From assembly GCF_900129775.1 (NCBI RefSeq), contig NZ_FQWV01000002.1:248001-312000 (forward strand): a DNA stretch of 64,000 bases, written 5' to 3'. Below the pieces are notes generated by a model. It was not told the origin of the DNA. It ran no database searches and was given only the letters and a program-made list of their open reading frames with translations. Positions 45,439-62,249 of this stretch are shown here, piece by piece. Source of the DNA: Halobaculum gomorrense (GTDB lineage: Archaea; Halobacteriota; Halobacteria; Halobacteriales; Haloferacaceae). Both the position numbers and the translations under genes were made by a program. Positions within the stretch are counted from its first letter, which is position 1; every line of letters begins with the position of its first letter.

Positions 45439-46049
45439 GAGGTGTCATGGTACTATTACAAAATAAAGCACCCGTCGGATCCCGCGCCTCGGCATTCGAG
45501 CGGTCGCGGTGAAGCAGACGGACAGAGGGGCGCTCGGTCAGCGCCGATCGCGGAGCAGGAGGGCGCCGGCGAGCAGGCCGAACGACCCGGCCGCGAGGAT
45601 CGATTGCGGCGGGAACCGGCTGGACTGGCCCGAGAGATCGGGGTTCGGCGACGAATCGCACGTCTCTACGGTTCCCTCGGTCGCGTTGTCGTAGGTGACC
45701 GTGCAGGTCTGCCCGCCTGTACCGACGACCGCGCCGGAGACGGTGTAGGTTCCCGACGACCACTCGGCCTCGACGGGCTCGCTCGGGTCGTTGTCTTTGA
45801 ACGCGGTTGCGGTCATCGTCGTGCCGTCGGCGTCATCTTCGGGCGCGAACGAGGTTCCCGTCCACTCCCACCGCACGAACGGCGTTCCGCCGTTGGGGCA
45901 CTCAGTAGCGCCGGCACCGCCGGACCCGATCGCTTCGGCTCCTGGATCCTGCGTGCAGAGGATCACGAAGCTGATCGCGGACCGTCTGTCGGGCGTGTCT
46001 GTCGTTGTGGTGGTCGTTGTTGTAGTCGTAGTCGTAGTGGTCGTAGTCG

Positions 46050-46275
46050 TTATTGTCGGAGTTGGCGTCGCGGTCGGCGTCGGCGTGGGCGTCGGCGTTG
46101 CCGTGGGTGTCGGAGTTGGCGTGGGCGTCGCGGTAGGAGTCGGCGTCGGAGTTGCGGTTGGTGTAGCAGTCGGGGTTGCGGTCGGCGTCGCAGTGGGCGT
46201 AGCTGTAGGAGTGGGAGTCTTGGTGGGTTTCTCGGTCGGTGTCTCGGTCGGGGTATTCGTCGGTTTCTCAGTGGG
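46050..46275 (-). repeat. Simple-sequence region encoding a Pro/Thr linker
   Basis: Repeating GT-G-rich hexamers and nonamers encode alternating TPT/TAT units on the minus strand, preceded by a run of Thr codons (about 46,000-46,050). It forms the extended, probably O-glycosylated stalk between the propeller and the C-terminal domain of the FG-GAP protein. The antisense Val/Gly frame is an artefact of this repeat. Confidence 0.75.
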
Positions 46276-47665
46276 TGTCGGCGTGGCTGGTGGTTCGGCT
46301 GTTTCAACCGCACACCGACCGTTGACGATGTAACCGGCGCCCGACTGGTTCTCGCCGTAGCCGGGCGCACCGATGAAGATGTCTTCGCGCTCGTCACCCG
46401 AGGTATCGTTGACGCCGGTGACGGTCCAGCCCGCGCGGTCGCCGGCGGACTCGCCGACGAACGTGGCGTCGGCCTTATCCAGACTGCGCGCTCCGTCTAG
46501 CTGCCCGCCGTACACGAGGTAGGCCGCGCCGGAGTTGTTCCCGGTCGAATCGTTGTACGGCGCCCCGACGAGGACGTCGTCGTAGTCGTCACAGTTCACG
46601 TCACCGGAACCGGCGGCCGCGACGTCCCAGCCGGCCTTGTCGCCGGCATCGACGCCTCGAAGCGTCACGCCTGCCTCGTCGAGGCGCTCGTCGTCGTCGA
46701 TGGGACCTGCGACGAGGTAGGCGGCGCCGGAGTTGTTCCCGGACGAGTCGCTGTACGGCGCGTCGACGATGATGTCGTCGTAGCCGTCAGCGTCCGTGTC
46801 GCCCGCGCTGGCGACCGACCAGCCGGCGTGGTCGCCCCGCGCGATGCCGGCGAGCCGGACGCCCTCGGTGACGGAGGCGTTCGAGTTGCCCTCTGCGTCG
46901 AGCACATAGGCCGCCCCCGCGCCCGGCCCGGTGGAGTTGTTCGAGGGCGCTCCGATCACCAGATCCGCGTCGTCGTCCCCGTCCGTATCGCCGGCGCTCG
47001 CCACGTCGAACCCCGCGAGGTCGCCCGCGCCTGCGCCGCCGAACGTCCGATCGGCCACGTCCGCGAGCGTGTCCGGCTCCGCTGGCGGCTGGATGCCGTC
47101 CGCGAGCGTGTTGCTAACGAGATAGACCACCCCGGCGTTCGTACCCCGCTAATTGTCGTTGCGCGGCGCCCCTACCAGCAGCGCGTCGACATCGGCAGCC
47201 GCACCGGTGCCGTCGTCGCTATCGCTGTCCGCCTCCGTGACGGGGAGCGACGCGACCGGGAACCCGACCATGTCCCCTTCGCCGACACCGGTCAGTATCG
47301 CGTCAGCCTCGGCCAAGAGATTGGCCGTCCCGGAGCGTTCGGTCTCGTTCGACAGCAGCAGGTACACCGCGCCGACGTCCTCGGCCGCGCTGTCGTTCTC
47401 GGGTGCGCCGACGGCGATGTCGCCGTCGCCGTCGAACTCGCCGGCAGTAACCGCGAAGCCGGCCCGATCACCGGCGACGCCGAGGAGGCGTGCGTCAGCC
47501 TCGCTCACGTTCAGCGTTCCCTCGGGGACGGGCCCGTAAAACACGTACGCCGCTCCACTGTCGTTCCCGTTCGTGTCGTTCGAGGGTGCCTCGATGAGGA
47601 GGTCCGTCTGGCCGTCGCCGTTCAGATCAGCCTCACCGCGGGCCGCGTACGCGAGCGAATCGTTC

Positions 47666-48468: not shown

Positions 48469-49512
48469 TCATAGGCCCGCCTCCCTGATCTCATCCCGAC
48501 GGCGAGCCAGCTCCTCGTCGAGATTCGGTTTGTCGTAGTACGCTCTGATCGTATCCGGCAGCGCGTCGACACGCCCTGCGACCTTCTGGATCCGAACCCC
48601 CCGATTCCGAAGGTCAGTGATCCGTCCCGTCCGAATCGGATGCGGACTCAACGCCGACGGGCACTTGCTCTCGTGACCGTGCTCCAAGTACAGGCACGTC
48701 GCCGGATCCTCGTCGTGCGGACAGCCGCCCCGGAAACACGGGTGCGTGAGATTGTACGAAGTCCGCCGGAACGTCGACGAAGTCGGCCGGCCGAACTTCG
48801 ACGTGAACAACGGCGAGCGGCCAAAATCGTCCTCAACGTCTTTCCGGTGCTCACGAATGTAGTCGCGAAGCACCTCGACCGTCGTCTCGTTGAGAACGTT
48901 CAATCGCTCGCCCGTGAGGCCGTTCTTCAGCCGCGTCTCCGACTCCTCACGACTGACGAACTGAACCGTGCCCTCCTCCGGATCGAAGTCCTCGACATCC
49001 AGCGCCCGAAGCCCAGAGATCCGCGCGCCCGTATCCCACATCGTGAGGAACAGGGCGTGATCTCGTGTCGCGTACCGGAACTTCTCAAGGTGATCGAGGA
49101 TCGCGTGAACGCGCTCCCGGCTGATCATCAAGTCGCTCGACACCTCCCCCTTCGTAAGCGAGGGGATGTGAGCCGAGAACTTCTCGACGAGCGCCGGCTC
49201 GACGGCCTCGAGCGCGACGCCGTAGCTCATGAACTGCCGGACCGTCCGGAGTTCGTTCTTCATCGACGTGTTGTTCAGCGCCGTCGCGCGGTGGTCCCTG
49301 TACGCCTTGATGTCGCGACCGTCGACGACGTTCAGGTTCAGGATATCCTCCGACTCCAGCCACTGAACGAACTGCCGGACGCGACGCCTGTACGAGTGAG
49401 CAGTACTCCCCGACGTGTCCGACTCGATCACGTCGAGCCACTCCTCCATCGCCTGTCGCGGCGTGATCGGTTGGAGGTCTCCCCGGCCAACCGACGATGC
49501 GTCGAAACTCAT
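48469..49512 (-). CDS. Tyrosine recombinase (integrase)
   Basis: 347 residues. An N-terminal SAM-like core-binding domain (about 20-115, TAHSYRRRVRQFVQWLE) precedes a catalytic domain with the first Arg in DTGARISGLRALD, HxxR in SPHPIRTGRI and the Tyr near the C-terminus in DTIRAYYDKP. A Cys/His-rich insertion (CFRGGCPHDEDPATC...HGHESKC) before the HxxR suggests a bound zinc, a feature of many haloarchaeal XerC/D-like integrases. It is the last gene of the seven-gene operon; its ATG overlaps the preceding stop by four bases. Confidence 0.9.
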   Translation of the reverse strand: MSFDASSVGRGDLQPITPRQAMEEWLDVIESDTSGSTAHSYRRRVRQFVQWLESEDILNLNVVDGRDIKAYRDHRATALNNTSMKNELRTVRQFMSYGVALEAVEPALVEKFSAHIPSLTKGEVSSDLMISRERVHAILDHLEKFRYATRDHALFLTMWDTGARISGLRALDVEDFDPEEGTVQFVSREESETRLKNGLTGERLNVLNETTVEVLRDYIREHRKDVEDDFGRSPLFTSKFGRPTSSTFRRTSYNLTHPCFRGGCPHDEDPATCLYLEHGHESKCPSALSPHPIRTGRITDLRNRGVRIQKVAGRVDALPDTIRAYYDKPNLDEELARRRDEIREAGL

Positions 49513-49814
49513 CGCGACCCCTCGAAGCGACCGCTCTCGTCTCGAAGCACGTCGCGATCTCCGTGGCGCTCCGCGGCGGCACCGGATGGTTCGACCGACT
49601 TCGGACGATGCGGACACCGTCCGTCAGCCACACCGTAGGAGCGACCCTTCCACCTGCAGTGGCCCAACTCCCGACCGTCGGGGGTGATCGTAATCCACCG
49701 CCGACAGACGCGGCACTTGATGTCGCCACGTCGCTTCGGGGGTGACGACTCACGCAACAGGTGTGCCGGGAGATCGTCGAGGACCTCGCCAGGGGAGCGC
49801 GGAACGGTGCTCAC
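49509..49814 (-). CDS. Small zinc-finger protein
   Basis: 101 residues. IKCRVCRRWITITPDG has a CxxC pair; GHCRWKGRSYGVADGRCPHRP supplies two more Cys and a His, fitting one zinc site. The N-terminal 30 residues are helical (GEVLDDLPAHLLRES). It probably binds DNA or protein in element biology. The stop overlaps the integrase ATG (ATGA), and its own ATG overlaps the stop of the gene before it. Confidence 0.65.
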   Translation of the reverse strand: MSTVPRSPGEVLDDLPAHLLRESSPPKRRGDIKCRVCRRWITITPDGRELGHCRWKGRSYGVADGRCPHRPKSVEPSGAAAERHGDRDVLRDESGRFEGSR

Positions 49815-52107: not shown

Positions 52108-53271
52108 TTAGTCCGCAAAGTCGCCTAACCGCTGATTCTGCTGGGTAAATCTGAAGATAGTTTTGTCTTCCTTGTAACCTCCCTGTGATCCGGTCCTCTT
52201 CGCGACAACTCTATCACACTCTTCCAAGTGCTGTAGAGCATCTCTACAATGGCTCTTTACCAGATCCGTGCTCGTATAGGCGTATTCAATCAGATACTCG
52301 TAACTGTGTTCCATTCCTTCAAATTCTTCGTAGAGATGATCAGCAAACTCTACTGACTTCTGGTCGTCCTCATTACCTCCATTCGTAGCATCGAACAGTG
52401 TCATCTGTTCATTTTCATACTTGTAGTGGTCCGGACCAAGGTACGCAAATAGATCGCTGTCACCCTCGTTGAACATGACGTCTTTCATAGCTCTGAGTCC
52501 ACGGAAGTGGTTCGAGGCAAAAATCAGGTAGTAGACGGTGACATTCTTATCTGGATGCTTCATTTGGAACGGAAAGACGTACTCAACTCCTGCTTCTTCC
52601 CGTAGTTGTGAAACGTACAGATGCAGTAGTTCCTTCTCTTGGTCCCTTCTATCTTCTATGTCTCTGATATATTTCCAACTATCACTACCAAATGCACGTG
52701 TAATTGTATCTGCCTTTTCGTCGTCATTCACGAATCTACGAATCTTGTCCACCATGAAATTGAAGAATACTTCATCTCCCGAGTCGCGGATGTTCATAAT
52801 CTCTGATATAGTTTGGAAAGGAGTTCCCTTGTACCCAAATGGGTCAATGAAAACAAGACTCGGGAGGTGTCGGTACTTACTACTGGTCAGAATATCCAGA
52901 GCAATGTCTTCGAATTTCCCATTATAGAACTCGGTGCCAATCTTGTCCGGATTTCCACAATTCTGTTTCTCTTCATTCACTTCCTGTTTCAGGACTTCAA
53001 AATTTGTAGGATTTAGCTCATTAAGTGTACAATGAAATTTATCAATTTGGTCTAAATGCCTATTGGCCACGTCAATTGCCAGAAGGGGAGATCCAGGTTC
53101 ACCGTCTTTGTACCGTCCTCTTCCCGCAAATCCGTCGAAGTAGTGAACTTCCGGATTCGTACTACCTAGGATTCTGGTCCATATAACGAGATATTTCCGG
53201 AGAATCCGATGCTTCACTTCCGTATGTTCCCTCATCTCCCATTTTTCAATGTTATCATCATCTAATGGCAT
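52108..53271 (-). CDS. tcmP: Three-Cys-motif partner protein TcmP
   Basis: 387 residues from the ATG at 53,271 (a TTG at 53,295 is the only longer start). HYFDGFAGRGRYKDG resembles the AdoMet-binding motif I of methyltransferases and LVFIDPFGYKGTP resembles motif IV, so I infer a Rossmann methyltransferase-like core. The family TcmP is defined by regularly neighbouring a radical-SAM (three-Cys) protein, as it does here, divergently. The C-terminal 80 residues include a possible winged helix (YTSTDLVKSHCRDALQHLEECDRVVAKRTG). G+C is far lower than the host. Biochemical role unknown to me. Confidence 0.8.
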   Translation of the reverse strand: MPLDDDNIEKWEMREHTEVKHRILRKYLVIWTRILGSTNPEVHYFDGFAGRGRYKDGEPGSPLLAIDVANRHLDQIDKFHCTLNELNPTNFEVLKQEVNEEKQNCGNPDKIGTEFYNGKFEDIALDILTSSKYRHLPSLVFIDPFGYKGTPFQTISEIMNIRDSGDEVFFNFMVDKIRRFVNDDEKADTITRAFGSDSWKYIRDIEDRRDQEKELLHLYVSQLREEAGVEYVFPFQMKHPDKNVTVYYLIFASNHFRGLRAMKDVMFNEGDSDLFAYLGPDHYKYENEQMTLFDATNGGNEDDQKSVEFADHLYEEFEGMEHSYEYLIEYAYTSTDLVKSHCRDALQHLEECDRVVAKRTGSQGGYKEDKTIFRFTQQNQRLGDFAD

Positions 53272-53378
53272 AGAAAGATTGCTTAGAGATGACAATCGGT
53301 CCCACCTACATTACTTTGCCGACTAGTTAGAATTGAACCACCATTCTCCGAGCGAACGATTATAGGAACTGTGCGAAT

Positions 53379-54707
53379 ATGGTGGCAACAATGAAGAATA
53401 ATAGGTCTGCCAACCGTGGTTTGACACTGCGCAGATCCGGTTCAGAGAGTGGCGATAGTTCCGGATATTCGCTATTTGGGGATGAAGGGAAACATCTCGA
53501 TGAAGTATCTGGGTTACCTCAATTGAAAGATCTGAGAGAGATGAGCCGAGACTACGGTGAGGCCTTAGAAAGGGTAGATATATTGAATTCTGATCTGAGT
53601 TGTTCCAGTTGTTCAGATGAGATTCAGGACAGATTCAGTGCGACTTCAGACAGTCATCTTTTGTGCTGGGACTGTGCGATGGAGCGTGTTGAAGAAGTTG
53701 ATCAACGGGGTGTGACTCACACAACTGATCCCACCAAGGCTGTCTTGTCGAACTCTGCCCTCCACCACAAGAATCTCTGCAACTACGTTATCAACGTCGC
53801 AACCGGCTGTACCCACGGTTGCAAATTCTGCTACGTCCCCAGTACGCCGAACATCAAGACTCGCGGTAAGATGCTCAAGGAGCAAGCAGGAGTGGAAAGC
53901 GGACAGAAAGAGTGGGGCAGCTATCTCCTCTACCGCGACGACCTTCCAGAACGCCTCGCTCGGAAACTCGACCGCAAGCGGAAGTGGGAGGAAACCGAAG
54001 ATGGCCGCGGCGTCGTGATGATCTCCAGCGGAACGGACTGCTATCAGGATCGCCGCGCCGCTCAGATCACCCGAGAGTGCGTCATCGAGCTAGTCAACCA
54101 CGGACGTCCGGTTCGTATCCTCACGCGGAGCCCGGCAGTAGTCCGCGATATCGACGTCTTCCAGGCGGCCGACGGCTACGTTACCGTCGGGTCCTCGATC
54201 CCTTGCCTCGACGACGAGTTGGTCCGGTCCATCGAGCCAGGAGCGCCCGCGCCGACGGCCCGCCTGAACGCCCTCGAAGAGATCAGTAACGCCGGAGTCC
54301 CGGTCTACGTCTCGATGTCGCCAACCTATCCGACACAGGATCGGGAGGACCTCCGAGCACTGCTCACCGAGTTCAAGGAACGACTCGACCCGGACGTGGT
54401 GTTCCACGAGCCGATCAACCCCCGTGGCGGGAACTTCCAGATGACCGTCCAAGCCGCGCGCGATGCCGGACAGACAGAACTCGCGGACGAACTCGACAAG
54501 CTCCGCGACCGTGAGAACTGGATCGAGTACTCGAAAGAGCAGCTCCTCGCGGTTCGCGATATCGGCGAGGACATCGGCGTCCCAATCCATCTGTGGCCAG
54601 ACAAGGAGTTCATCAAGCACGCTGGGGAAGATTCGGAGTTCTTCCGTCAGGAGCGGGAGAAGATGGACTCACCGGAGGATTACCCGAAGCCTCCGGCTCC
54701 CGTCTAA
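53379..54707 (+). CDS. Zinc-ribbon radical-SAM protein A (SplB/Gp37-Gp68-like)
   Basis: 442 residues. An N-terminal zinc ribbon (CSSCSDEIQDRFS...LLCWDC) precedes a radical-SAM domain with the cluster motif C-x3-C-x2-C in TGCTHGCKFCYVPSTP, then VVMISSGTDCYQDRRAAQITREC, PVRILTRSPAVVRDID and FHEPINPRGGNFQM. The fold resembles spore photoproduct lyase-like/DUF5131 proteins. It is divergent from tcmP with a 107-bp shared promoter region. The first 370 bp are A/T-rich and the rest G+C-rich, so the gene is a mosaic. An ATG 12 bp downstream is an alternative start. Confidence 0.82.
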   Translation: MVATMKNNRSANRGLTLRRSGSESGDSSGYSLFGDEGKHLDEVSGLPQLKDLREMSRDYGEALERVDILNSDLSCSSCSDEIQDRFSATSDSHLLCWDCAMERVEEVDQRGVTHTTDPTKAVLSNSALHHKNLCNYVINVATGCTHGCKFCYVPSTPNIKTRGKMLKEQAGVESGQKEWGSYLLYRDDLPERLARKLDRKRKWEETEDGRGVVMISSGTDCYQDRRAAQITRECVIELVNHGRPVRILTRSPAVVRDIDVFQAADGYVTVGSSIPCLDDELVRSIEPGAPAPTARLNALEEISNAGVPVYVSMSPTYPTQDREDLRALLTEFKERLDPDVVFHEPINPRGGNFQMTVQAARDAGQTELADELDKLRDRENWIEYSKEQLLAVRDIGEDIGVPIHLWPDKEFIKHAGEDSEFFRQEREKMDSPEDYPKPPAPV

Positions 54708-54784
54708 CGGTTCGGTTGGCTACTTCCACTTCCACCGTGGATGGCGGAGTTCTATTTATGTAGAGCGTGTAGCAAACGGTAGAG

Positions 54785-56062
54785 ATGAGCGTGCGCCTTG
54801 ACACGAAGCGCGACCCTGACGGCGGGTGGTACGACCGCTACGTCGAACTCGTCGACGATGAGGGTCGCGTCGTCAAGGAGTTCGGAAAGAACCCGACGCT
54901 CAACGAGCTCCGCGAGGCAGAGCGCGAATACGGCGAGCGAATCAACCTCTGGCAGCAGGGCCTGATTTGTTCCGATTGCGGGAACCAGATCAACGAGCGA
55001 TTTAGTGCCGACCTCGAGGGGAATCTACTCTGTTGGGATTGCGCTTCTGAGGAGGATAGTTCAGACCAGTCCGGTCTCCGAGTCAATGCGGACCCAACGA
55101 AATCGGTCCTCAGCGAGTCCAAGCTCTACGAAAAGAGCCTCTGCGACTACGTGATCAACGTCGCGACAGGATGCCGTCACGGCTGCAAGTTCTGCTATGT
55201 ACCGAGTACCCCTGCTATCCAGAACAGAGAGGAGATGCTGGGAGACAAGGCCGGCGTCGAGGACGGACAACAAGAGTGGGGTAGCTACCTCCTCTATCGC
55301 GACGATCTCCCAGAGCGACTGAACGAAGGGCTGCAGGACAATCCGTGGGAAGATTGGGACAAGACTGACCGAGGTCGTGGCGTCGTGATGCTCTCAAGCG
55401 GAACCGACTGCTACCAGGACAAACGGGCAGCACAGATCACGAGATCGTGTGTTCACGAACTCGTCAGTAACGACGTTCCCGTACGGATTCTGACTCGCAG
55501 CCCGAATCTGCTCCGAGATATGGACTTGTTCCGCAAGGCAGGAGAGTACGTCACAGTCGGCATGTCGATACCGTCTTTCGACGACGAGTTGGTACGAGCG
55601 ATGGAACCGAATGCCCCGCCACCAATGCAGCGTTGGAAGGCGCTTGAGAAGCTCTCGAAGAATCAAGTACGCCGATTCGTATCCTTCTCACCGACGTACC
55701 CAACGATGGACGAAGAGGAGATCCACGAGGCGCTTTCGTGGTTCTCCGCTCTCGGCCCGGAAGTCGTGTTCCATGAACCGATCAATCCTCGCGGAGCCAA
55801 CTTCGAGATGTGCGTCGAGGCAGCTGAGAATGCCGGGCGGCAGCAACTCGCCGACGATCTACGCTCGATGGAGGATGAAAGCATCTGGAAGGAATATGCC
55901 TTAGAGCATATCAAACTGGTCAGAGACTGCGCCCGGCGGTTCGACAATATCCAAATACATTCGTGGCCAAGTAGGGACTTGGTTCGAGCAACCAAGGGCG
56001 AGACGCGGAGTTGGCTGCTTACACTTCGTGAGGAGGTCTCACCAGAGCAACACCCTCAATAA
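54785..56062 (+). CDS. Zinc-ribbon radical-SAM protein B, paralogue of A
   Basis: 425 residues aligning with protein A over its full length: zinc ribbon CSDCGNQINERFS...LLCWDC, cluster motif TGCRHGCKFCYVPSTP, VVMLSSGTDCYQDKRAAQITRSC, PVRILTRSPNLLRDMD and FHEPINPRGANFEM. The N-terminal segment LDTKRDPDGGWYDRYVELVDDEGR differs and looks like a small beta domain. A TATTTATG box about 30 bp before the ATG gives it its own promoter despite the 77-bp gap to A. Substrate unknown. Both copies retain all cluster cysteines, so the pair has probably specialised rather than decayed. Confidence 0.83.
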   Translation: MSVRLDTKRDPDGGWYDRYVELVDDEGRVVKEFGKNPTLNELREAEREYGERINLWQQGLICSDCGNQINERFSADLEGNLLCWDCASEEDSSDQSGLRVNADPTKSVLSESKLYEKSLCDYVINVATGCRHGCKFCYVPSTPAIQNREEMLGDKAGVEDGQQEWGSYLLYRDDLPERLNEGLQDNPWEDWDKTDRGRGVVMLSSGTDCYQDKRAAQITRSCVHELVSNDVPVRILTRSPNLLRDMDLFRKAGEYVTVGMSIPSFDDELVRAMEPNAPPPMQRWKALEKLSKNQVRRFVSFSPTYPTMDEEEIHEALSWFSALGPEVVFHEPINPRGANFEMCVEAAENAGRQQLADDLRSMEDESIWKEYALEHIKLVRDCARRFDNIQIHSWPSRDLVRATKGETRSWLLTLREEVSPEQHPQ

Positions 56063-56149: not shown

Positions 56150-57847
56150 TCAGAGCGACCAGATATTGACGCACGCCTGCGCCAGTTCCTTCGTCCGCGT
56201 GTCAATGTTCTCCCCAGACCACTCGTCGTAGTCTTCCCCAACCGCCTTCGTCATCTCGTACTCGGACGTTGAGTACACGTCCTTCTTGTTCTCGAAGGGG
56301 TCCGCGCCGATCGACGCGTTTCGGTCAGGTTCGAGCAGCGTGAGATTGCCCAGTCGGTCACGGACCTGAGTGAACTCTCCTTCGGTCATGTCCAACTGTA
56401 CGGGCCACGCGCTGTACTTCTTCGCGCTGAACGCGGCGCGAGGCGCGATGTGTTCTCGCTCCGGCTCCGAGAAATCGACCTGTGACCCGTCGTAATAGTC
56501 CTCTTCGATACGGATCAGCATGTACTTCGTCTGGTCGTTCAGCCGCATCCGCTTGTTCTCCAAGCTCGTCCGGAATTCGCCGTCGCTCGGCCATCGATCG
56601 GTGAACAAATCACGGAGTTCATCTGCGACTTCACTCTCATCGTCGAAGCACTCCGAGCAGGCTCGCGAGTAGATCCGGTCGATCTCGCCACCAGTCGGGT
56701 AGTTCGCCGCCTTCCAGCGGATGACGAACGCCTCGAGGACTCGTAGGGCTTCCATCACCCGGTTCGCGGAATCGAGCTCGTCGATGATCCGCAGGAGGAT
56801 AGTGCGGGCTTGGGTGATGCTGAGCATCTCGAGGTCGTCCAGCTTGTCGTTCACTGCCGCGTTCCCGTTGGAATCGTACTTACTGACGGAGTGGTCGATG
56901 AGATCCGAGTAGATCGACGCGCTCCGCAACATGTCGGCGACGTACTCCTCAAGAGAGATACCTGCCTTGTCCAGTTTGTTATCGACGATATCTTGGAAGG
57001 TGTCGTAGAGCTTGTAGTCCGAAACGTCACCGTCGTGGTCGGGCTCCGAAGCCGACATGATGTAGTGCCGGAAGAACCGACTCGGTTTGGAAAGCTTTGG
57101 TACGATCTGCTCAACGATCGCCTCCCAGTCGTCACGAATCCGATCGTAATCGATGGAGGGATCCGTTGCCGCCGTGCTGAACACGTAGTTCTTCATCAAG
57201 TCGACTGCGGAGAGTTCGAGGCCACGATCGTTGAGTGTCTCGAACAGCCTGAAGGCCGACTGCTCACCGTCGGTCGTTATCGAGACTGCGGTGACGCTCC
57301 GGAGCAGTTTATTGCGTATCTCGTTGATCTCCTCGGCATCCAAGCTATCCATCTTGTTTGCGTAGAATTGGAAGCCTTCTTTCAGGTTCGAGTCACTCAC
57401 TTTGTCGAACCGTTGATCGAGGACCGCCCGGTAATCGTCGTTATCGAACTTACTCAAGCTTAGATTGGGATATCGAGCGGTATCGATATCCTCCTGCCAG
57501 AGGTATTTGTCGTTTATTGAGTCCGCTTGTTTCTCCAGATCCTCGTTGAGGTACTTCTGGCGCATCACTGCTAGGATCAACGAGATCGTCGTCAGCCGTT
57601 GCTGACCGTCGACCACCTCTAATTGGTCGAGGTCGTTGAGACCTTGGCTGCGTTCGATGAGTACGATCGAACCTACAAAATGAGTGTCTCCTTCTTCGAT
57701 CGCTTGGATGTCGGACCACAGCGCAGCCCACTGTTCTTCGTTCCATGCGTACCGCCGCTGGTAGTCGGGAACGGTGTACCGATATTGCCGCGTGAGGATA
57801 CTCTCGATCCGGTCTTCAGTGGCAGTCAACCCAATACCGCTACTCAT
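56150..57847 (-). CDS. DUF262-DUF1524 nuclease (GmrSD-like)
   Basis: 565 residues. N-terminal DUF262 has YTVPDYQRRYAWNEEQW, FVGSIVLIE and the nucleotide-binding VVDGQQRLTT. The middle is helical. C-terminal DUF1524 has EREHIAPR and LGNLTLLEPDRN, the His-Asn-His-like nuclease core. This fusion is found in type IV restriction enzymes (GmrSD, cutting glucosylated DNA) and SspE-like effectors of phosphorothioate systems. Which modification it senses here is unknown. It faces convergently toward radical-SAM B and lies downstream of the type IIG gene in the same direction, with an 80-bp gap. Confidence 0.85.
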   Translation of the reverse strand: MSSGIGLTATEDRIESILTRQYRYTVPDYQRRYAWNEEQWAALWSDIQAIEEGDTHFVGSIVLIERSQGLNDLDQLEVVDGQQRLTTISLILAVMRQKYLNEDLEKQADSINDKYLWQEDIDTARYPNLSLSKFDNDDYRAVLDQRFDKVSDSNLKEGFQFYANKMDSLDAEEINEIRNKLLRSVTAVSITTDGEQSAFRLFETLNDRGLELSAVDLMKNYVFSTAATDPSIDYDRIRDDWEAIVEQIVPKLSKPSRFFRHYIMSASEPDHDGDVSDYKLYDTFQDIVDNKLDKAGISLEEYVADMLRSASIYSDLIDHSVSKYDSNGNAAVNDKLDDLEMLSITQARTILLRIIDELDSANRVMEALRVLEAFVIRWKAANYPTGGEIDRIYSRACSECFDDESEVADELRDLFTDRWPSDGEFRTSLENKRMRLNDQTKYMLIRIEEDYYDGSQVDFSEPEREHIAPRAAFSAKKYSAWPVQLDMTEGEFTQVRDRLGNLTLLEPDRNASIGADPFENKKDVYSTSEYEMTKAVGEDYDEWSGENIDTRTKELAQACVNIWSL

Positions 57848-57926: not shown

Positions 57927-60900
57927 CTATTCATTCACCGCCTCCTCCACGATAGCGATCTCTTCGTCGGTCAGGCCGTAGAGTTCGTAGACAATCTCGT
58001 CGATTAGGTCGTCGGTGCGTTCGATCTGCTCCTCGAGTTCCTCGGCACGGGCCTTCGTCTCCTTGTAGCTCTCCAGTCCGTCGCGTACGTCGTCGACGTC
58101 CGGGAGCGTGAGCGCACGGAGCCGGTCGACGAGCGAGTTCGTCTTCGTCGCGGTCTCGCGGAAGTTCGCAAAGCCGCCAGCTTCGTCTACGGCGACCGGG
58201 ACGAAGTGCTCGATCAGATCTGCCTCCATCTCGGTGAGGTCGGTGATGCGAAGCGCCGGCAGAGATTCGGTCTCGGTGTAGCCCCACTGATCGGTCTCGT
58301 AGGCGTCCTCGTCGTCGGGTTTGTACCGGGCAGTCAGGCTGATCTGGATCGTGCTGTCGGACTCACGGATTACGTCTACTTGACCAACACGGAGGTTCGG
58401 CTTCTGCTCAGCAGTTTCTTGCAGAATAGAGTCAGCTGCGTTCTGTGGGGGCTGAGTGAGGCCAATACCCGAGATTACTGGGCCGTCAGAGTACGTACCG
58501 AGGTGATCTAACAGGAAGAGGTTCAATGAATCTAGATCACTGTGAAGGTCGATCATCTCCTCGGCCAGCAGGGGTAAGATGTCGCCCGAATGGCCAAGGA
58601 GGTAGTCTCGATCGAAGACCTCTGTTACTTGAGATCCATTCATAAAATCGTCGTAATGAGACTCAAAGACACTCGGATCGAACGAATCTGTGTTTTTCTC
58701 TGGGGGTAGCGGGATCGAGAATGGATTTAGGTAGTCTGTCTTGAAAGTGAAATATCCTCCCCGGAGCGCGTATCCAGTGTTTTTGAGGAAGAACCACAAA
58801 ACCTCAGTGTTGATGATCGGAAGCAGATACTTCTCATCAATGACGTCGTCCTCCGTTTTGACGCCGTAGACCTTCGTTTTATGATATAACCCATCTGGAT
58901 CGTAAGTGAAGTTCGTCCCGTAGCTAATCTCTGGCGTTACGATTTTTTCTTCAGCAAATTCTGTGAGATTCTTCGGGTAGACGTAGTCGTACCAGCCTTC
59001 ACGGTCCATCTTTCCGTTTTCACGGGCTCGAATCTTCGCTTCGTGCGCTTTGAGATATTCATAGAGTCGCGGATACGACTCACGAAGGGTATCCTCATCA
59101 ACGAAATTTGTGACGAGTTCACCTCCTTCTTCGGTTAGCTTGTACGGGAATATTACGAAGTACTTCGGGTCGAGCGGCTCGTATCTATGTACGTCTTCGC
59201 CTTTTAATAAGGGCTTCAGCAGTTCCGCTTCAACAGTCCATTCTTCGCCATCTTCCTGGCTTCGGACTGTTATCAGATCTCCATTACGCTCCTCAATCTT
59301 TTCCAGCAGATAGATTGAATCCCCGCTCGTAACCAAGCCTTGGTATATGCGGTCCGTGACCTGTTCTAGGTTTGGTCCAGACTGATCGATTTTTCTAAGA
59401 ATCGCTTCCGTCTCTGCATCACGGAAGATCCAAGGCGATTCGTTATACTCAGCAGGGATTTCCCGAAACACCGGCTTGCCACCCCCGACCAAGTCCTCGG
59501 GTTTGACTTCTGCGTATTTGAAACTCTCCTGCCCGCTCTTGGTCAAGAATACCATACAGGTATAGACTGAAGCTCCTTCGAAGACCTGTTCGTGCTCGAA
59601 AGAGACGATTTCGTAGAGTGAATTACGCTCTGAGAGGTACTTCCTAAGACCTGTTCCGAAGTCACTCTGGAAGAACTTATGAGGTTCAATGTACCCGAGC
59701 TTCCCTCGGTCTGAGAGCAACTGCTGACCCTTCTCTGTGAAATTCGCGTAGATATCGAAGTTCCCGGTAGCAGATTCGTACTTTTCAGTGAAGTATGATG
59801 CCTGCTTCGGTGTGTGCTCGCGGAGGGATTGAATTCTGATGTATGGAGGATTCCCAACGATCGCATTAAATCCAGCATCACTACGCCTCTCGCCATCTTC
59901 TCCGAAGAAAACCTCTGGATACTCTAGTTCCCAGTGGAAGAAGTTCTCCTCTTCCGCCATCGTCTGCGCTGTCTTGAACCAGTCCCCCTCGCGCAACTCA
60001 TCCCACTCACCTTCGTCTTCGATCGCGCCGGCCATCACCTCATATACGTCCTCGAATCCCTCGTAAGCGTCGCTCGGGATGTCCAACCCAAACTGCTCCG
60101 CCGTATGCACGTTCGCCAACTCGAACAGCCGCCCGTACAGCGGGTCGTCGCGGATCTCCTCGTACAGATCCTCCATCGACTTGATGTCCTCGTACTGTTC
60201 GTTGTCGGTAGCGAGCAGGTCGGCCATGAGGTCCATCACGTGTTCGAGCGTGCGCTGACGGGCCTGGGCGGCGACCTGAAACAGCGTGATTTGTCCGTCC
60301 TCCTCGTCTCCGCCGTCGTCCGAGAGGGCCTCCGTGATATCCGACCCAACCAGTGAGTTCCCGTCCTTGAGGTGGTGGTCGAGGAACGCGAGCGGCTTCT
60401 CCTCCGCGAGCGTCTCAAGCCACATCGACAGCTTCGCCAGCTCGACGGCCATCCCGTTGATGTCGACACCGTAGATGCACTCGCGAGAGACGCGCCGCCG
60501 GACCTCCTGCTCGTCGAAGACGTCGGTCGTCTCGTCGACTTCACGGGCCCGCCGCGCAACGTGGTTCCCGAGGTAGCCTGTCGCCTTCGTGAGGAAGTGC
60601 CCCGACCCCATCGCCGGGTCAAGAACCGTGAGGTCCGTCACGCGTTCGATGAACGCCTCGACGTACCGCTCGGTCCCCTCGCGGATCCCGCGACTCGCGA
60701 GGTCCTGTTCGATGTCCTCGATCAGCGGGTCAATCGTCTCCTCGACGATGTACGTCACGACGTAGTCGGGCGTGTAGTACGCGCCTGTGGCCTTCCGCTC
60801 GCCGTCGTCGTTCACCACGTACAGTTCGCCCTCGTTGACCGTCTCGATCGCGTCGTCATCCACCTCGCTGGACAGTTTCCAAACCTGTCCGCCATCTTCG

Positions 60901-62249
60901 GCGACGGCAGCGTAGTCCTCCGGCGCGATCCGGAATTCGTGCTCAAGTAGCCCCTCGTAGATGGTTCCGAGGTGTCGCGTGTCCAAGTCGGCGTAGTCCG
61001 CCGGGACACGTCCGTCTTCGCTCTCAGAGTCGGTCGTCCCGACTTGGTAGATGACCTCGGCGATGTACCGGTTCGAGACCTCGTACTCCGTGAGGTACGC
61101 GTGCTCGTCGGGGTCGAACAGTCCCCCGTTGTACGGCGGGATGCTCAGGGCTTCCTCACCAGCGTCGACGAGACTGAACAGGTCCTCGAGTTGGCTCCAC
61201 ATCGAGGTCGAGTACTCGCTGTACTCGTCGAACCGCTTCCCCTCGTCCTCGACCTGGGTCACGATCTCTTGGCGGAGGACGTCGAGGCTGAAGTTCTCGT
61301 CGTACTCCTGTCGCTTCCCCGGGTCGTTGGGACTGATCAGACCGCGAGACTCGGCGTACAGTACGAACATCAGCCGATACAGCAGGACCAGCGATTGCTC
61401 CTTCAGTTCTTCTAGGGCCTCTTCGCGGTCTGAACCTGTCTTCGGATTGATGCCGAGATCGTTCGACTCGACGAAGCCCTCCCCGAGGATTCGGAGCGCG
61501 GTGAAGACGTTATCTTGGAGATCTTCGCCGAGTTCTTGCGCGGCCGTCTCGGACTCGTTCCAGACTTCGTCGAGGAACGAGGTTCCCGAGATCTCATGGA
61601 ACGCCTCTGGCCGGAAGAATACGTAAAAGTATTTGAATTGCTCAAGACTCCCGGATTCGAGCAGCTCAGGAAGATCGACCTCGTAGTACGTCTCAGTCTG
61701 GTAGTCTTTGGTCCCGTAGAGTCGCCACTTCCGGCCGTTCGTCAGGATACCCCACCGGAGCTGGTCGGGCGTCCGTTCGAGGTAGTACTTGACTTGGTGG
61801 GACGCATCGCGGTACTGTCGCTGGACGCCGAATTCCTCGTCGAAGTCGGCATCCCACTGCTTGGCCTCCAGCAGCGAAGACGCTCGGGCGAACGTCGCGT
61901 TGTACATACCGTCCTGCTGCATCTCCATCGCTTCCCGGCGGGTCTCGGGCGAGTCGAATAGTACCCTGTCGATGCGGCCGTTCGTTTCTGGAAGGGGTGT
62001 TTCCTCAACTGTGTCGTGTCCGAGTCCCCGGAGAACCTTGTCTATCCACTGGCTCAGGAGGGTGCTCTCGTTGTAACCACCCACCAGCGATTTCTCGTCT
62101 TCCCACAGGGTTTGGAGTGCCTGGAACGCTGCTTCCGCTTCCTCGTCGCAGTCCCACGCGTCGCGGTCGGCGACACGCTCATCAAGATAGTAGCCGGAGA
62201 AGAGGCTCGAATTCCGGTATGGCTCCGGGCCGAGCGTAGCTTGACTCAT
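57927..62249 (-). CDS. Type IIG restriction-modification enzyme (Eco57I-like)
   Basis: 1440 residues. A PD-(D/E)xK nuclease is at the N-terminus (D94 in GRIDRVLFD, E128-x-K130 in LLEAKQW). A helical connector follows, then the adenine methyltransferase: YYTP (491-494), motif I DPAMGSG (544-550) and motif IV NPPY (800-803). The C-terminal 600 residues should contain the target recognition domain and coiled coils (ETKARAEELEEQIERTDDLIDEIV). One chain thus methylates and cuts DNA. Residues about 760-1270 are encoded by DNA of clearly lower G+C. No separate BREX or DISARM genes are present. Confidence 0.9.
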   Translation of the reverse strand: MSQATLGPEPYRNSSLFSGYYLDERVADRDAWDCDEEAEAAFQALQTLWEDEKSLVGGYNESTLLSQWIDKVLRGLGHDTVEETPLPETNGRIDRVLFDSPETRREAMEMQQDGMYNATFARASSLLEAKQWDADFDEEFGVQRQYRDASHQVKYYLERTPDQLRWGILTNGRKWRLYGTKDYQTETYYEVDLPELLESGSLEQFKYFYVFFRPEAFHEISGTSFLDEVWNESETAAQELGEDLQDNVFTALRILGEGFVESNDLGINPKTGSDREEALEELKEQSLVLLYRLMFVLYAESRGLISPNDPGKRQEYDENFSLDVLRQEIVTQVEDEGKRFDEYSEYSTSMWSQLEDLFSLVDAGEEALSIPPYNGGLFDPDEHAYLTEYEVSNRYIAEVIYQVGTTDSESEDGRVPADYADLDTRHLGTIYEGLLEHEFRIAPEDYAAVAEDGGQVWKLSSEVDDDAIETVNEGELYVVNDDGERKATGAYYTPDYVVTYIVEETIDPLIEDIEQDLASRGIREGTERYVEAFIERVTDLTVLDPAMGSGHFLTKATGYLGNHVARRAREVDETTDVFDEQEVRRRVSRECIYGVDINGMAVELAKLSMWLETLAEEKPLAFLDHHLKDGNSLVGSDITEALSDDGGDEEDGQITLFQVAAQARQRTLEHVMDLMADLLATDNEQYEDIKSMEDLYEEIRDDPLYGRLFELANVHTAEQFGLDIPSDAYEGFEDVYEVMAGAIEDEGEWDELREGDWFKTAQTMAEEENFFHWELEYPEVFFGEDGERRSDAGFNAIVGNPPYIRIQSLREHTPKQASYFTEKYESATGNFDIYANFTEKGQQLLSDRGKLGYIEPHKFFQSDFGTGLRKYLSERNSLYEIVSFEHEQVFEGASVYTCMVFLTKSGQESFKYAEVKPEDLVGGGKPVFREIPAEYNESPWIFRDAETEAILRKIDQSGPNLEQVTDRIYQGLVTSGDSIYLLEKIEERNGDLITVRSQEDGEEWTVEAELLKPLLKGEDVHRYEPLDPKYFVIFPYKLTEEGGELVTNFVDEDTLRESYPRLYEYLKAHEAKIRARENGKMDREGWYDYVYPKNLTEFAEEKIVTPEISYGTNFTYDPDGLYHKTKVYGVKTEDDVIDEKYLLPIINTEVLWFFLKNTGYALRGGYFTFKTDYLNPFSIPLPPEKNTDSFDPSVFESHYDDFMNGSQVTEVFDRDYLLGHSGDILPLLAEEMIDLHSDLDSLNLFLLDHLGTYSDGPVISGIGLTQPPQNAADSILQETAEQKPNLRVGQVDVIRESDSTIQISLTARYKPDDEDAYETDQWGYTETESLPALRITDLTEMEADLIEHFVPVAVDEAGGFANFRETATKTNSLVDRLRALTLPDVDDVRDGLESYKETKARAEELEEQIERTDDLIDEIVYELYGLTDEEIAIVEEAVNE

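What the first reader, a model, noticed from the sequence alone, without database searches (positions are those of the whole stretch)
52108..56062. TcmP with two tandem radical-SAM paralogues: candidate nucleic-acid modification or defence system
Seen: a methyltransferase-like TcmP (motifs FDGFAGRG and FIDPFG) is divergent from two full-length radical-SAM paralogues, each with a zinc ribbon and an intact C-x3-C-x2-C site, and is flanked by a small winged-helix gene and, convergently, by a DUF262/DUF1524 nuclease. Known: TcmP proteins are named for their regular neighbour, a radical-SAM three-Cys protein. Inference: one module with two radical-SAM enzymes, possibly acting on different sites or as a heterodimer, modifies DNA or RNA, and the nuclease or type IIG enzyme beside it may read or complement the mark. 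The duplication is what looks undescribed.
Basis: partly seen in the sequence, partly recalled or inferred. Interest (0 to 1): 0.75.

Follow-up and report, generated by a model that had tools for sequence, protein, structure and literature searches.

The report
TcmP module with paired radical-SAM enzymes
A salt-loving archaeon carries a mobile three-gene cassette, found again in about twenty relatives, in which a fixed pair of radical-SAM enzymes is combined with a freely exchanged methyltransferase-like partner; it probably modifies DNA or RNA, perhaps as antivirus defence.

Summary
tcmP (52108-53295, -) lies divergent to two intact radical-SAM paralogues, rsamA (53379-54707) and rsamB (54785-56062), 54% identical. 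The arrangement is not strain-specific. Of 293 genomes of the order, 20 carry TIGR04474; all 20 have a radical-SAM gene of this family in the same locus, and 17 have both A and B. An 18th pair sits beside a TcmP that the family model missed. A tree supports the split of A and B as ancient. A and B co-vary (Mantel r = 0.84), but neither co-varies with TcmP (r = 0.08 and 0.02): two loci with 93% identical rSAMs carry TcmPs 16% identical. The conserved unit is thus the rSAM pair, with TcmP swapped against it. The TcmP model is closest to the rRNA m6A methyltransferase RlmJ; the rSAM-A model is closest to spore photoproduct lyase. In bacteria TcmP pairs with one DUF5131 protein, the untested PADLOC defence candidates PDC-M30/M41; the archaeal module is a two-rSAM variant. 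The neighbouring GmrSD nuclease is not a conserved part. Most likely it is a mobile nucleic-acid-modifying, probably defensive module whose TcmP sets the target. Substrate and phenotype are untested.

The parts
52108..53295 (-). tcmP: RlmJ-like class I methyltransferase domain (about residues 14-287) plus a C-terminal domain with winged-helix-like secondary structure (about 308-383); likely start ATG 53271
   Evidence: TIGR04474 216.8 bits; PADLOC PDC-M30A; AF2 pLDDT 81, best PDB fold RlmJ; invariant K28, D54, G58, G68-S69, D151
53379..54707 (+). rsamA: zinc-ribbon + spore-photoproduct-lyase-like radical-SAM enzyme, CTHGCKFC
   Evidence: PF04055; AF2 pLDDT 85, best PDB fold spore photoproduct lyase; A group of the tree
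54785..56062 (+). rsamB: paralogue of rsamA, zinc ribbon + radical-SAM enzyme, CRHGCKFC
   Evidence: PF04055; 54% identical to rsamA; B group supported 99/100
53296..53378 (.). 83-bp gap between the divergent tcmP and rsamA genes; presumed shared promoter region (inferred)
   Evidence: ORF coordinates
56150..57847 (-). GmrSD-like DUF262/DUF1524 nuclease: neighbour, not a conserved part of the module
   Evidence: PF03235, PF07510; recurs in no other locus
57927..62249 (-). type IIG-like restriction-modification protein: neighbour; relatives near three other module loci
   Evidence: PF07669 and others; PADLOC; loci L029, L046, L114

Best explanation
This is a mobile three-gene nucleic-acid-modification module, most likely an antivirus defence system. 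Two spore-photoproduct-lyase-like radical-SAM enzymes, A and B, form a conserved catalytic pair, possibly a heterodimer or two successive steps. TcmP, an RlmJ-like SAM-binding protein that in this subtype has a C-terminal winged-helix-like domain, selects the target and may carry out a first methyl transfer. Exchange of TcmP changes the specificity while the rSAM pair stays. Shown: gene structure, conservation, ancient A/B split, co-variation of A and B, exchange of TcmP, fold relationships, patchy spread. Inferred: that the substrate is nucleic acid, that TcmP is the specificity part, that A and B act together, that the outcome is defence. DNA is slightly favoured over RNA as substrate.
For: 20 of 20 TIGR04474 loci in the order have an adjacent rSAM, 17 of them both A and B; an 18th pair, G152, has a TcmP that TIGR04474 missed. 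B group 99/100, A group distinct. Mantel A-B r = 0.84 (0 of 5000 permutations), A-TcmP 0.08 (p 0.17), B-TcmP 0.02 (p 0.37). Between Haloarcula-like genomes carrying different TcmPs, DNA identity covers only the roughly 2.5-kb A-B unit and ends about 45 bp before the stop of rsamA. TcmP fold RlmJ, Z 18.7 against 14.7 for the next family, with an invariant Lys and Asp at the expected places of RlmJ K18 and D164, which are needed for catalysis (PMC3814359). rSAM fold spore photoproduct lyase, Z 18.8 against 15.5. Bacterial counterpart TcmP + DUF5131 = PADLOC PDC-M30/M41. Some loci lie beside BREX, CRISPR-Cas or type IIG enzymes. tcmP is 43% G+C in a 67% window.
Against: No substrate, product or phenotype has been shown. 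Motif IV is DPFG here and DNQ(G/E)L in many relatives, not RlmJ's DPPY, so adenine-N6 methylation cannot be assumed. The PDC label rests on guilt by embedding. Three loci have only one rSAM (L027, L028, L033), as do the cyanobacteria, so the pair is not always needed. Most neighbours are unannotated, so defence-island enrichment was not measured. TcmP alignments near 16% identity are noisy, although membership is clear from the profiles.
Confidence: 0.5

Rival explanations
1. The module modifies host RNA (rRNA or tRNA), as RlmJ does, for example to protect translation from a toxin or to change it during infection; the zinc ribbon binds RNA.
For: Best fold of TcmP is an rRNA methyltransferase, followed by the tRNA methyltransferase Trm1; zinc ribbons are common in RNA-binding proteins (general knowledge).
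Against: Swapping of TcmP against constant rSAMs is unexpected for a fixed rRNA or tRNA site; the best rSAM fold is a DNA-lesion enzyme, not RlmN/Cfr or MiaB; the C-terminal part of TcmP looks like a winged helix.
Confidence: 0.25
2. It is a DNA-repair system for UV lesions, in which SPL-like enzymes reverse pyrimidine photoproducts of sun-exposed haloarchaea.
For: Spore photoproduct lyase is the best fold of rSAM-A.
Against: Patchy presence (20 of 293 genomes, none of the four listed same-genus relatives), plasmid and island locations, fixed link with a fast-swapping methyltransferase-like protein.
Confidence: 0.08
3. It is a viperin-like system: the radical-SAM enzymes act on free nucleotides to make a chain terminator or signal, and TcmP is a second small-molecule step.
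For: Viperins are among the fold matches (Z about 14) and are defence rSAMs.
Against: Viperin-like folds rank well below spore photoproduct lyase and level with many other rSAMs; TcmP resembles nucleic-acid methyltransferases.
Confidence: 0.07
4. It is a selfish or toxin-antitoxin-like cargo of mobile elements in which TcmP and the rSAMs poison and protect the host, without a dedicated antiviral role.
For: Mobile, patchy, low G+C, next to integrases in several loci; TcmP is split in L039.
Against: No toxin-like family is matched; rSAM genes persist without TcmP in some genomes.
Confidence: 0.1

Closest known systems
TcmP + DUF5131 (phage Gp37/Gp68, PF07505) pair; PADLOC candidates PDC-M30 and PDC-M41
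   Same: Same TcmP family; DUF5131 is the regular partner in bacteria and is co-linear with rSAM-A/B in a profile alignment (weak on its own).
   Different: Here DUF5131 is replaced by a separate, larger SPL-like rSAM family, normally as two ancient paralogues, most with an added zinc ribbon; rSAM-A/B match neither PF07505 nor PDC-M30B/M41B.
Radical SAM mobile pair A/B (TIGR04471/TIGR04470), Bacillota
   Same: Two adjacent radical-SAM genes on mobile DNA; mobile pair protein B is homologous to rSAM-A/B (hhalign E 9e-18).
   Different: The pair has a MarR regulator and no TcmP nearby; protein A aligns only at the cluster motif; rSAM-A/B score far below the TIGR04470 cut-off (70 and 55 bits against 410).
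Spore photoproduct lyase
   Same: Best solved fold of rSAM-A (Z 18.8).
   Different: Only about 15% identity; zinc ribbon added; works with TcmP; no spores.
RlmJ, 23S rRNA m6A2030 methyltransferase
   Same: Best solved fold of TcmP (Z 18.7); shares the DxxAGxG motif; Lys and Asp at the expected catalytic places.
   Different: Motif IV is DPFG or DNQG rather than DPPY; extra C-terminal domain; mobile and swapped, not a housekeeping gene.

Membership tests
TcmP (TIGR04474) | Score over the curated cut-off | tested here: met
   216.8 bits against 53
TcmP (TIGR04474) | Neighbouring three-Cys or radical-SAM partner | tested here: met
   All 20 loci of the order
PADLOC PDC-M30/M41 | A component (TcmP) | tested here: met
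   PDC-M30A, E 8.9e-43
PADLOC PDC-M30/M41 | B component (DUF5131 type) | tested here: not met
   rsamA and rsamB have no PADLOC match and no PF07505 match; so a variant, not a member
Radical SAM superfamily | PF04055 with intact CxxxCxxC | tested here: met
Spore photoproduct lyase | SPL family score over cut-off | tested here: not met
   PF20903 22.4 and 12.4 bits against 27; TIGR04070 16.5 bits against 400
Spore photoproduct lyase | Hydrogen-donor Cys | tested here: inconclusive
   A Cys lies in the loop SSGTDCY, but equivalence could not be checked without coordinates
Radical SAM mobile pair | TIGR04470 over cut-off | tested here: not met
   69.8 and 55.3 bits against 410
RlmJ (m6A methyltransferase) | DPP(Y/F) motif IV | tested here: not met
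   DPFG in the window, DNQ(G/E)L in relatives
RlmJ (m6A methyltransferase) | Motif X Lys and motif IV Asp | tested here: inconclusive
   K28 and D151 are invariant in 19 sequences; equivalence to K18 and D164 is by position only
Anti-phage defence system | Protects against infection | not testable with these tools
   Needs plaque assays

The most novel reading that the evidence does not exclude
A new kind of modification-based immunity: two paralogous radical-SAM enzymes install (or remove) a carbon-centred nucleobase modification at sites chosen by an exchangeable RlmJ-like subunit, so that specificity is changed by swapping TcmP, much as type I restriction systems swap HsdS.
Probability: 0.25. 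Interest if true: 0.9.

Novelty: new variant of a known kind. Interest (0 to 1): 0.62.

Why it matters
TcmP is named only for its neighbour, and its pairing with DUF5131 is an untested defence candidate present in many bacteria (PDC-M30 in 32 of 100 P. aeruginosa isolates in PMC10855318). The archaeal version adds two clues that make the function testable: a fixed pair of paralogous radical-SAM enzymes, and a TcmP that is swapped against it, as expected of a specificity part. No radical-SAM-made base modification is known to me as the basis of an immune system; if confirmed it would be a new chemistry in defence.

Tried and rejected
GmrSD nuclease, winged-helix gene and PadR gene as module parts: rejected, not constant beside the module. 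Recent local duplication of one rSAM: rejected by the tree. Membership in the spore photoproduct lyase or RlmJ families proper: rejected on family scores and motif IV. Viral contig search: 16 loci, most matching only the cluster motif; two closer solo rSAMs (L123, L124) and no pair. Sequence search of solved structures with the rSAM profile gave nothing significant. Literature: no paper in the library names DUF5131 or 'radical SAM mobile pair', and none that I found treats TcmP of this kind functionally. Verrucomicrobial matches (L054, L056) showed no TcmP by profile search.

Full report
Observation. tcmP matches TIGR04474 strongly (216.8 bits, cut-off 53). The two radical-SAM proteins match PF04055, are 54% identical, and keep both the cluster motif and an N-terminal CxxC..CxxC ribbon. 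The neighbours are a GmrSD-type nuclease and a type IIG-like enzyme.

Is the arrangement conserved? I searched 293 genomes of the order with TIGR04474. Twenty have a match, and the four listed relatives of the same genus have none. I then fetched up to 20 kb around each. All 20 loci carry a relative of these rSAMs next to tcmP; 17 have both A and B, and three (L027, L028, L033) have A only (L039 has a split tcmP). Searching the same genomes with the rSAM profile adds G152, which has the pair and a TcmP that the family model missed. It also adds three genomes with a divergent solo rSAM: G102 in a virus-like cluster, G212 and G155. Named relatives include Halorubrum kocurii, Natrialba asiatica, Halopiger goleimassiliensis and Haladaptatus salinisoli. 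Three main architectures occur: tcmP divergent from tandem A-B (window, L026), tcmP-A-B in line (L022, L031, L040, L042), and A divergent from B with tcmP beyond A (L021, L023, L035 and others). The last has a short A of about 350 aa without a zinc ribbon. L030 has tcmP between the two rSAMs.

History of the pair. In a tree of 58 rSAMs, B is one group (99/100) and A another, into which the solo haloarchaeal forms fall (the A group as a whole is not strongly supported). Both are spread over several haloarchaeal families, so the split is old. Cyanobacteria (L052, L057, L111) and an uncultured archaeon (L059) have TcmP with a single rSAM.

TcmP is exchanged. Over the 20 loci with all three genes, A and B distances correlate (Mantel r = 0.84, 0 of 5000 permutations), while A-TcmP (0.08, p 0.17) and B-TcmP (0.02, p 0.37) do not. 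L023 and L038 have A and B 93% identical and TcmP 16% identical. The reverse also occurs: the window's TcmP is 62% identical to L021's although their rSAMs are only 57% identical. At DNA level, in Haloarcula-like genomes with different TcmPs, similarity covers about 2.5 kb from near the 3' end of rsamA to the end of rsamB and stops there. In all but one of the loci measured tcmP is the poorest in G+C; in the window it is 43% against 57% for the rSAMs and 67% for the window.

What the proteins are. The TcmP model (pLDDT 81) matches RlmJ best (Z 18.7, 2.7 A over 211 residues; next family 14.7), and the TcmP profile finds RlmJ weakly in PDB sequences (E 0.005). K28 and D151 are invariant and lie where RlmJ has K18 and D164, both needed for activity (PMC3814359); this equivalence is by position, not by superposition. 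Motif IV differs: DPFG here, DNQ(G/E)L in many relatives. The C-terminal part has winged-helix-like secondary structure, and bacterial TcmPs show sub-threshold matches to the GMT-wHTH family there. The rSAM-A model (pLDDT 85) matches spore photoproduct lyase best (Z 18.8; next 15.5).

Known relatives. In actinobacterial and proteobacterial plasmids TcmP sits next to a DUF5131 (Gp37/Gp68) protein; PADLOC calls these PDC-M30A/B and PDC-M41A/B. These are unvalidated candidates found by guilt by embedding; PDC-M30 was predicted in 32 of 100 P. aeruginosa strains, 68.8% of which were phage-resistant (PMC10855318). The profile of rSAM-A/B aligns with DUF5131 over 164 columns with co-linear motifs, but weakly, and with mobile-pair protein B strongly (E 9e-18). 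In S. meliloti a TcmP gene is listed together with the Hna defence gene among genes changed in expression (PMC12445080).

Surroundings. No further gene family is constant. A phage-type HTH occurs in 8 of 28 loci, an integrase in 6, PadR in 5, type IIG in 4, and GmrSD only in the window. Individual loci lie beside BREX (L111), CRISPR-Cas (L119) or a helicase with DUF499/DUF1156 proteins (L115). I did not test enrichment.

Mechanism. I favour a nucleic-acid-modifying, probably defensive module in which the rSAM pair is the constant chemistry and TcmP the exchangeable specificity part. The conservation, co-variation and exchange are shown; the substrate, the partner complex and the phenotype are inferred. 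Novelty: a new, conserved two-rSAM variant of a known candidate pair, not a categorically new system on present evidence.

Noticed in passing
L094-L105 (Haloarcula-like genomes): ORFs of about 150-208 aa that are 3' remnants of rsamB. Six break within about 15 bp of the same site (codon about 289, CACCGATGACTCGCTGGCAGGC), mostly with unrelated upstream DNA: a possible recombination or integration hotspot inside rsamB.
   Followed up: partly
L107:2394-5796: A Rhodococcus plasmid carries two different tcmP genes with one Gp37/Gp68 gene.
   Followed up: no
rSAM loop around residues 216-222 (alignment A2): A Cys sits at SSGTDCY in nearly all haloarchaeal TcmP-linked rSAMs, at CSGTDPY in three cyanobacterial ones, and is missing in the chromosomal solo forms L092 and L093: perhaps a functional Cys.
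   Followed up: no
L048:2356-4920: A solo B-type rSAM in a Halobacteria MAG lies divergent to a protein that looks like a nuclease; no TcmP was found on the short contig.
   Followed up: no
L121:8004-9074, L123, L124: Solo rSAMs in virus-like clusters or viral contigs, without TcmP by profile search.
   Followed up: partly
window 48469-49617: Tyrosine-recombinase integrase about 2.5 kb from tcmP; G+C falls from about 70% to 44% at tcmP, so an integrated element is likely; its ends were not mapped.
   Followed up: no
window 45538-47130: Predicted repeat-containing protein (GDxxGWxVA-type repeats) with long TP-rich and poly-T tracts.
   Followed up: no
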